The position numbers and the translations under genes were made by a program. Below the pieces are notes generated by a model. That model was not told the origin of the DNA and made no database searches. It was given only the letters and a program-made list of their open reading frames with translations. From Fervidobacterium nodosum Rt17-B1 (lineage in GTDB: Bacteria > Thermotogota > Thermotogae > Thermotogales > Fervidobacteriaceae): a stretch of 64,000 nt of DNA. Position 1 is the stretch's first letter; every line of letters starts with the position of its first letter. The stretch lies in contig NC_009718.1 in the NCBI RefSeq assembly GCF_000017545.1, forward strand, positions 372,001 through 436,000. The letters run 5' to 3'. Below, piece by piece: positions 28,417 to 28,720 of the stretch.

Positions 28417-28492
28417 GGCGGCGTAGCTCAGTGGCTAGAGCAGATGATTCATAATCATCGTGTCAAGGGTTCGAGTCCCTTCGCCGCCACCA
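28417..28492 (+). tRNA. tRNA-Met (CAT)
   Basis: A complete 76 nt cloverleaf with encoded CCA. The acceptor GGCGGCG pairs with CGCCGCC. The anticodon stem GATGA/TCATC holds loop TTCATAA, anticodon CAT at 28450-28452. The T arm is AAGGG-TTCGAGT-CCCTT. Initiator features (C1 mismatch, GGG/CCC anticodon pairs) are absent, so it is an elongator Met tRNA; a CAT tRNA later modified to Ile cannot be ruled out. Confidence 0.93.
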
Positions 28493-28692
28493 GTTTTTTT
28501 AAATATACCTTGTATTATTTTTTTCCTTATGCCAGCGTAGCTCAATCGGTAGAGCGACGCATTCGTAATGCGCAGGTTAAGGGTTCGAGTCCCTTCGCCG
28601 CCACCAGTTTTTTTAAATATACCTTGTATTATTTTTTTCCTTATGCCAGCGTAGCTCAATCGGTAGAGCGACGCATTCGTAATGCGCAGGTT
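28465..28692. repeat. 114 bp tandem duplication across the tRNA genes
   Basis: Unit 28465-28578 is repeated as 28579-28692. Each unit starts exactly at the T-stem of a tRNA-Met 3' half, runs through the spacer with its T-run, and ends just before the T-stem of the tRNA-Thr. Shared AGGGTTCGAGTCCCT T-arm sequence at both edges explains it by unequal crossing-over between tRNA-Met and tRNA-Thr. Confidence 0.95.
28531..28606 (+). tRNA. Chimeric tRNA, Thr(CGT) 5' part with Met 3' part (probable tRNA pseudogene)
   Basis: The first 48 nt equal the tRNA-Thr at 28645, including anticodon CGT (28564-28566). From the T-stem on it equals tRNA-Met. The acceptor stem GCCAGCG against CGCCGCC leaves two mismatches (C2-C71 and A4-C69) while the T arm, discriminator A and CCA are intact. 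It is likely transcribed; normal folding and charging with Thr is doubtful. Confidence 0.9.
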
Positions 28693-28720
28693 GAGGGTTC
28701 GAGTCCCTCCGCTGGCTCCA
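28645..28720 (+). tRNA. tRNA-Thr (CGT)
   Basis: A 76 nt cloverleaf. The acceptor GCCAGCG pairs fully with CGCTGGC. The anticodon loop TTCGTAA gives CGT at 28678-28680. The T arm GAGGG-TTCGAGT-CCCTC, discriminator T and encoded CCA are all present. The 27-43 pair is A-C, the only mismatch. This is the intact member of the duplicated pair. Confidence 0.93.

What the first reader, a model, noticed from the sequence alone, without database searches (positions are those of the whole stretch)
28417..28720. Chimeric tRNA created by a tandem duplication between tRNA-Met and tRNA-Thr
Two exact 114 bp units (28465-28578, 28579-28692) begin at a T-stem and end before a T-stem. The middle tRNA carries the Thr 5' part (CGT) and the Met 3' part, leaving mismatches C2-C71 and A4-C69 in the acceptor stem. 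This catches unequal crossing-over within T-arms in the act and yields a tRNA that retains CCA and a working T-arm but probably not Thr identity. It may be a pseudogene, a decoy RNA or a slow variant.
Basis: seen in the sequence. Interest (0 to 1): 0.75.

Follow-up and report, generated by a model that had tools for sequence, protein, structure and literature searches.

The report
Chimeric tRNA pseudogene from small duplication
A 114-base stretch running from the middle of one tRNA gene to the middle of its neighbour was copied once in tandem, leaving a third, mixed tRNA gene whose end stem no longer pairs properly; it is very probably a harmless by-product, a clean snapshot of how tRNA gene clusters change.

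Summary
Two identical 114-bp units (28465-28578, 28579-28692) lie head to tail between tRNA-Met(CAT) and tRNA-Thr(CGT). The middle tRNA is Thr positions 1-48 joined to Met positions 49-76, with C2·C71 and A4·C69 in the acceptor stem. Only one duplicated segment of a two-gene Met-Thr state reproduces the three-gene state base for base. Its ends lie at 48|49 in both genes, beside the longest stretch the genes share (15 bp of T-arm). All ten same-genus and sister-genus genomes searched have the two-gene Met-Thr-obg state. The chimera was not found in the other 102 genomes of the phylum. It is the only tRNA in its genome with two acceptor mismatches, and predicted acceptor pairing is about 0. Bacterial Thr identity uses C2-G71, which is lost; the Met anticodon is absent. 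Best reading: a lineage-specific tandem duplication by template slippage or unequal exchange in the T-arm, giving a probably co-transcribed but non-functional chimeric tRNA that annotation tools call a second tRNA-Thr. A close precedent exists in a tadpole-shrimp mitochondrion (trnC/trnY). No reads, RNA data or second strain were available.

The parts
28369..28397 (+). likely promoter of the tRNA operon (TTGACA - 17 - TAAAAT, with TG before the -10)
   Evidence: consensus scan, 11 of 12 matches; a similar TTGACA...TAAAAT stretch stands upstream of tRNA-Met in the relatives
28417..28492 (+). intact tRNA-Met(CAT), the left parent
   Evidence: ARAGORN, Rfam RF00005 71.3 bits; identical to tRNA-Met of G001 and G008
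28465..28578 (+). 114-bp unit 1: Met 49-76, 38-bp spacer, chimera 1-48
   Evidence: exact period-114 identity
28531..28606 (+). chimeric tRNA: Thr 1-48 (anticodon CGT) joined to Met 49-76; C2·C71 and A4·C69 mismatches, discriminator A instead of U
28578..28579 (+). duplication joint (tRNA position 48|49), directly 5' of the 15-bp T-arm core shared by Met and Thr
   Evidence: only one duplicated segment reproduces the observed sequence
28579..28692 (+). 114-bp unit 2: chimera 49-76, 38-bp spacer, Thr 1-48
   Evidence: exact period-114 identity
28645..28720 (+). intact tRNA-Thr(CGT), the right parent
   Evidence: ARAGORN, Rfam 70.3 bits; identical to tRNA-Thr of G001, G008 and G009
28753..28785 (+). 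likely intrinsic terminator of the tRNA operon
   Evidence: 9-pair stem followed by a T-run

Best explanation
A single in-register tandem duplication of 114 bp, from position 49 of tRNA-Met to position 48 of tRNA-Thr, turned an ancestral Met-Thr pair into Met-chimera-Thr in this lineage (shown by reconstruction and by relatives). It most likely arose by replication slippage or unequal exchange guided by the 15-bp T-arm sequence shared by the two genes. The joint at the very base of the T-stem fits a nascent strand that had copied the Met T-arm back to position 49, came off (the T-arm is an inverted repeat and can fold on itself) and re-paired with the Thr T-arm, leaving one terminal G·T mismatch; heteroduplex repair after a crossover would give the same product (inferred). 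The chimera is probably co-transcribed between the two intact genes (inferred from promoter and terminator), but its acceptor stem has C2·C71 and A4·C69, so it should misfold, not be threonylated, and be degraded (inferred). It is a chimeric tRNA pseudogene with no role of its own; both parent genes are intact, so the cell loses nothing.
For: Exact 114/114 identity. A unique duplicated segment reproduces the locus, with the joint in register next to the longest direct repeat of the two-gene state (15 bp at offset 114; the only other of at least 8 bp is 10 bp). Ten of ten genomes of the same and sister genus have Met then Thr with nothing between, all followed by obg. Exact junction absent from the other 102 phylum genomes and from genome contigs. 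Only tRNA of the genome with two acceptor mismatches; the one other mismatch is initiator-type C1·U72. Modelled cloverleaf -15.1 against -29.1 kcal/mol for both parents at 37 C, acceptor pairing probability 0-0.03 from 37 to 70 C against 0.86-1.0. Bacterial Thr determinants include G1-C72 and C2-G71 (PMC9976931).
Against: ARAGORN and Rfam still accept it as a tRNA, and 59.4 bits lies within the genome's range of 52.7-76.5, although most lower scorers are long-variable-arm tRNAs. G1-C72, the Thr anticodon G35-U36 and the whole Thr D and anticodon arms are kept, so some residual charging is possible. Secondary-structure energies leave out tertiary contacts and modifications. No expression or read data.
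Confidence: 0.85

Rival explanations
1. Assembly or sequencing artefact: the genome really has only the two-gene Met-Thr state.
For: All ten relatives have two genes; no reads and no second assembly of the species were available here.
Against: The joint is a new sequence, not a collapse or repetition of an existing one, and the joint and both units span less than 300 bp, shorter than most reads. The contig is a single 1.95-Mb sequence with 99.67% estimated completeness.
Confidence: 0.06
2. The chimera is a working second tRNA-Thr(CGT), perhaps slow or poorly charged, kept because it adds decoding capacity for ACG.
For: Keeps the Thr anticodon arm, D-arm, G1-C72, CCA and a fully paired T-arm; lies inside a likely operon.
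Against: C2-G71, a bacterial Thr determinant (PMC9976931), is broken; acceptor pairing modelled near 0. ACG was the rarest Thr codon in six neighbouring genes (11 of 114 Thr codons), the intact tRNA-Thr(CGT) is present, and tRNA-Thr(TGT) exists as well. No relative carries it.
Confidence: 0.06
3. The chimera acts in cis: its 3' acceptor strand is identical to that of Met and can pair with Met's 5' strand, so that the extra gene alters folding or processing of the precursor.
For: The minimum-energy fold of the whole transcript pairs Met's 5' strand with the chimera's 3' strand; duplex energy Met5-chimera3 equals Met5-Met3 (-15.8 kcal/mol) and chimera5-Thr3 equals Thr5-Thr3 (-13.8).
Against: This follows automatically from the duplication, and tRNA-Met is transcribed and can fold before the chimera exists. 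No sign of selection.
Confidence: 0.04
4. The extra tRNA part is an attachment-site scar of an integrated element.
For: Integrative elements commonly leave partial tRNA copies (PMC9897764).
Against: The duplicated unit is 114 bp and consists only of the two tRNA parts and their spacer; there is no room for an element, and the joint combines two different tRNAs.
Confidence: 0.01

Closest known systems
Chimeric trnC/trnY 'unassigned region' in the mitochondrial genome of Lepidurus apus lubbocki (PMC6537178)
   Same: A chimera of two neighbouring tRNA genes lies between the two intact parents, attributed to unequal exchange where the two genes are most alike; the acceptor strands do not match and it is read as a pseudogene.
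   Different: Mitochondrial, crossover in the anticodon arm, not recognised as a tRNA by software; there reads excluded an assembly error. Here a bacterial chromosome, joint at the base of the T-stem, 114-bp unit identical throughout, and tools call it a tRNA-Thr.
Partial tRNA genes mis-listed as tRNA genes in prokaryotes (PMC9897764)
   Same: A non-canonical tRNA-like gene that automated finders count as a standard tRNA.
   Different: The listed sources are integration of mobile elements and CRISPR acquisition; this one is a short tandem duplication joining two isotypes.
Tandem duplications that add tRNA genes in Pseudomonas fluorescens SBW25 (PMC7661048)
   Same: tRNA gene copy number changed by tandem duplication in a bacterium.
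   Different: Those are 45-290 kb and copy whole genes under selection; this is 114 bp with both ends inside tRNA genes and no evidence of selection.
Tandem trnF pseudogene arrays in plastids of Solanaceae (PMC3786074)
   Same: Tandem duplication of part of a tRNA gene beside the intact gene, copies with damaged or missing acceptor stems.
   Different: Copies of a single tRNA, old and variable in number; not a fusion of two isotypes.

Membership tests
Chimeric tRNA pseudogene from unequal exchange or slippage between neighbouring tRNA genes (as in PMC6537178) | 5' part from one neighbour and 3' part from the other | tested here: met
   Positions 1-48 identical to Thr, 49-76 identical to Met
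Chimeric tRNA pseudogene from unequal exchange or slippage between neighbouring tRNA genes (as in PMC6537178) | both parents intact on either side | tested here: met
   Met and Thr identical to those of relatives
Chimeric tRNA pseudogene from unequal exchange or slippage between neighbouring tRNA genes (as in PMC6537178) | joint in or beside the region of highest similarity of the parents | tested here: met
   Joint directly beside the 15-bp shared T-arm core, the longest direct repeat
Chimeric tRNA pseudogene from unequal exchange or slippage between neighbouring tRNA genes (as in PMC6537178) | ancestral state without the chimera in relatives | tested here: met
   10 of 10 two-gene loci
Chimeric tRNA pseudogene from unequal exchange or slippage between neighbouring tRNA genes (as in PMC6537178) | reads exclude an assembly error | not testable with these tools
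   no reads held
Chimeric tRNA pseudogene from unequal exchange or slippage between neighbouring tRNA genes (as in PMC6537178) | loss of function | tested here: inconclusive
   Predicted from acceptor mismatches and folding, not measured
Functional tRNA-Thr | CGT anticodon in an intact anticodon arm | tested here: met
Functional tRNA-Thr | bacterial Thr determinants G1-C72 and C2-G71 (PMC9976931) | tested here: not met
   G1-C72 kept; 2-71 is C·C
Functional tRNA-Thr | seven-pair acceptor stem | tested here: not met
   two mismatches, pairing probability near 0

The most novel reading that the evidence does not exclude
The chimeric tRNA is transcribed, survives in the cell and has an effect of its own, for example as an uncharged or poorly charged Thr(CGU) decoy or by exchanging acceptor strands with its neighbours in the precursor, so that a 114-bp slippage creates a new RNA regulator in one step.
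Probability: 0.04. Interest if true: 0.6.

Novelty: new member of a known kind. Interest (0 to 1): 0.3.

Why it matters
It is an unusually clean record of one event: both parents, the joint and the unmodified state in ten relatives are all readable, so the origin of a chimeric tRNA gene can be fixed to the base. It shows that the shared T-arm can guide short duplications between unlike tRNA genes in a bacterium, and that annotation tools will count the product as a second functional tRNA-Thr. It does not reveal a new kind of system.

Tried and rejected
Exact junction in genome contigs and the spacer in genome contigs: nothing, though records of the window's own genome may be left out there. 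A shorter junction pattern in viral contigs gave two contigs (L075, L076); they were not examined further, because a short T-arm pattern is expected in unrelated tRNAs. Compensatory mutation G49 to A after a plain crossover: a chimera with G49 folds no worse (-15.5 against -15.1 kcal/mol), so there is no evident pressure for it, and it would need a second change exactly beside the joint. Integration scar: rejected, no element. Literature searches for a bacterial chimeric tRNA by tandem duplication found no earlier case in the held library, which is not proof that none exists; most subscription journals are missing.

Full report
Observation. The window holds three tRNA genes, all on the + strand: tRNA-Met(cat) 28417-28492, tRNA-Thr(cgt) 28531-28606 and tRNA-Thr(cgt) 28645-28720. 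Two 114-bp units, 28465-28578 and 28579-28692, are identical at every base, and Tandem Repeats Finder reports the same array with score 482. The middle gene is Thr in positions 1-48 and Met in positions 49-76. Its acceptor stem has C2·C71 and A4·C69 and its discriminator base is A, as in Met, instead of U, as in Thr.

Origin. The window lies in a single 1,948,941-base contig. Eight further species of the same genus and two of a sister genus have tRNA-Met followed directly by one tRNA-Thr. In all ten the pair is followed by obg, and in six the same upstream gene (PHP-like, reading away) is also found within the stretch held. The Met and Thr genes of the window are identical to those of G001 and G008, so the parents are unchanged and the two-gene state is ancestral. 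A search of 103 genomes of the phylum with the junction, allowing three mismatches, found it only in this genome; the other hits are ordinary tRNA-Met genes with three mismatches.

Mechanism of the duplication. Testing every possible duplicated segment of the two-gene state, exactly one reproduces the three-gene locus: position 49 of Met to position 48 of Thr, 114 bp. The joint has no shared base on either side, because Met and Thr differ at both 48 (C/T) and 49 (A/G). It lies directly 5' of AGGGTTCGAGTCCCT (positions 50-64), which is the longest direct repeat of the two-gene state and is in the same register (offset 114). An unguided join would rarely fall in register and beside that repeat, so the T-arm homology most likely guided it. 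A plain crossover inside the 15-bp core would give G49 with U65; the chimera has A49. The simplest route is slippage while the lower strand was being made. The new strand had copied Met back to position 49, completing the self-complementary T-arm, then came off and paired with the Thr T-arm with one terminal G·T mismatch, and copying continued into Thr. A crossover with heteroduplex repair gives the same sequence. This step is inference.

Fate. The promoter-like TTGACA-17-TAAAAT upstream (28369-28397) and a terminator-like hairpin downstream (28753-28777 with T-run) bracket the three genes, so the chimera is probably transcribed with its neighbours. Of the 47 distinct tRNA sequences recovered from the genome it is the only one with two acceptor mismatches; one other has a single mismatch, C1·U72 in a tRNA-Met(cat) of initiator type. 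Its Rfam score is 59.4 bits against 70.3 for intact Thr, still inside the range of the genome's 50 tRNA matches (52.7-76.5). In the energy model its cloverleaf is about 14 kcal/mol weaker than either parent's and its acceptor pairs have probability 0-0.03 at 37-70 C. The minimum-energy fold of the full transcript pairs Met's 5' strand with the chimera's 3' strand, a by-product of the duplication that is unlikely to matter if tRNA-Met folds first. Bacterial threonine identity uses G1-C72, C2-G71 and the anticodon (PMC9976931); the C2-G71 pair is lost. That review gives no strong bacterial role to position 73, so the U-to-A change may matter little. Methionine identity depends mainly on the CAU anticodon (general knowledge), which the chimera lacks. 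The likely outcome is an uncharged, unstable RNA that is removed. ACG is rare among Thr codons in six neighbouring genes (11 of 114), and an intact tRNA-Thr(CGT) is present, so nothing obvious favours a second copy.

Age. Zero differences in 114 bp, of which only the 38-bp spacer is free of tRNA constraint, make the event young relative to the species splits, where spacers differ in length (15-68 bases) and sequence. They do not prove that it happened in culture. By general knowledge, 114-bp exact repeats should recombine back to two genes at an appreciable rate, so the locus may be polymorphic.

Novelty. The same kind of product, a chimera between two intact neighbouring tRNA genes with unmatched acceptor strands, has been described in a tadpole-shrimp mitochondrion (PMC6537178). 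Tandem duplication as a source of bacterial tRNA genes is known at 45-290 kb (PMC7661048), and miscalled tRNA-like genes from other causes are known in prokaryotes (PMC9897764). The case here is a new member of that kind, the first in a bacterial chromosome that these searches turned up, which is not a claim of priority.

Noticed in passing
28493-28500 and 28607-28614; L010-L015, L017, L019: A run of 4-7 T follows closely on the CCA of tRNA-Met in all species of this genus but not in the two sister-genus loci (L016, L018); it might cause partial termination before tRNA-Thr. The duplication has doubled it here.
   Followed up: no
window 20001-32000: GC skew switches from about -0.16 to +0.24 close to the tRNA locus, where gene orientation also turns from - to +. 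dnaA lies near base 1,100 of the contig, far away, so gene orientation probably explains it.
   Followed up: partly
G000:C1:812662-812816 and 1283678-1283832: Two copies of an Ile/Ala-type tRNA pair with the same Rfam scores, as expected inside rRNA operons; two tRNA-Asn(gtt) genes (36410 and 38615) also score identically and lie 2.2 kb apart.
   Followed up: no
L012-L014: In three relatives tRNA-Met has G49-C65 in place of A49-U65, so there the T-arm identity with tRNA-Thr is longer (at least 17 bp) than in this genome, yet no duplication is seen.
   Followed up: no
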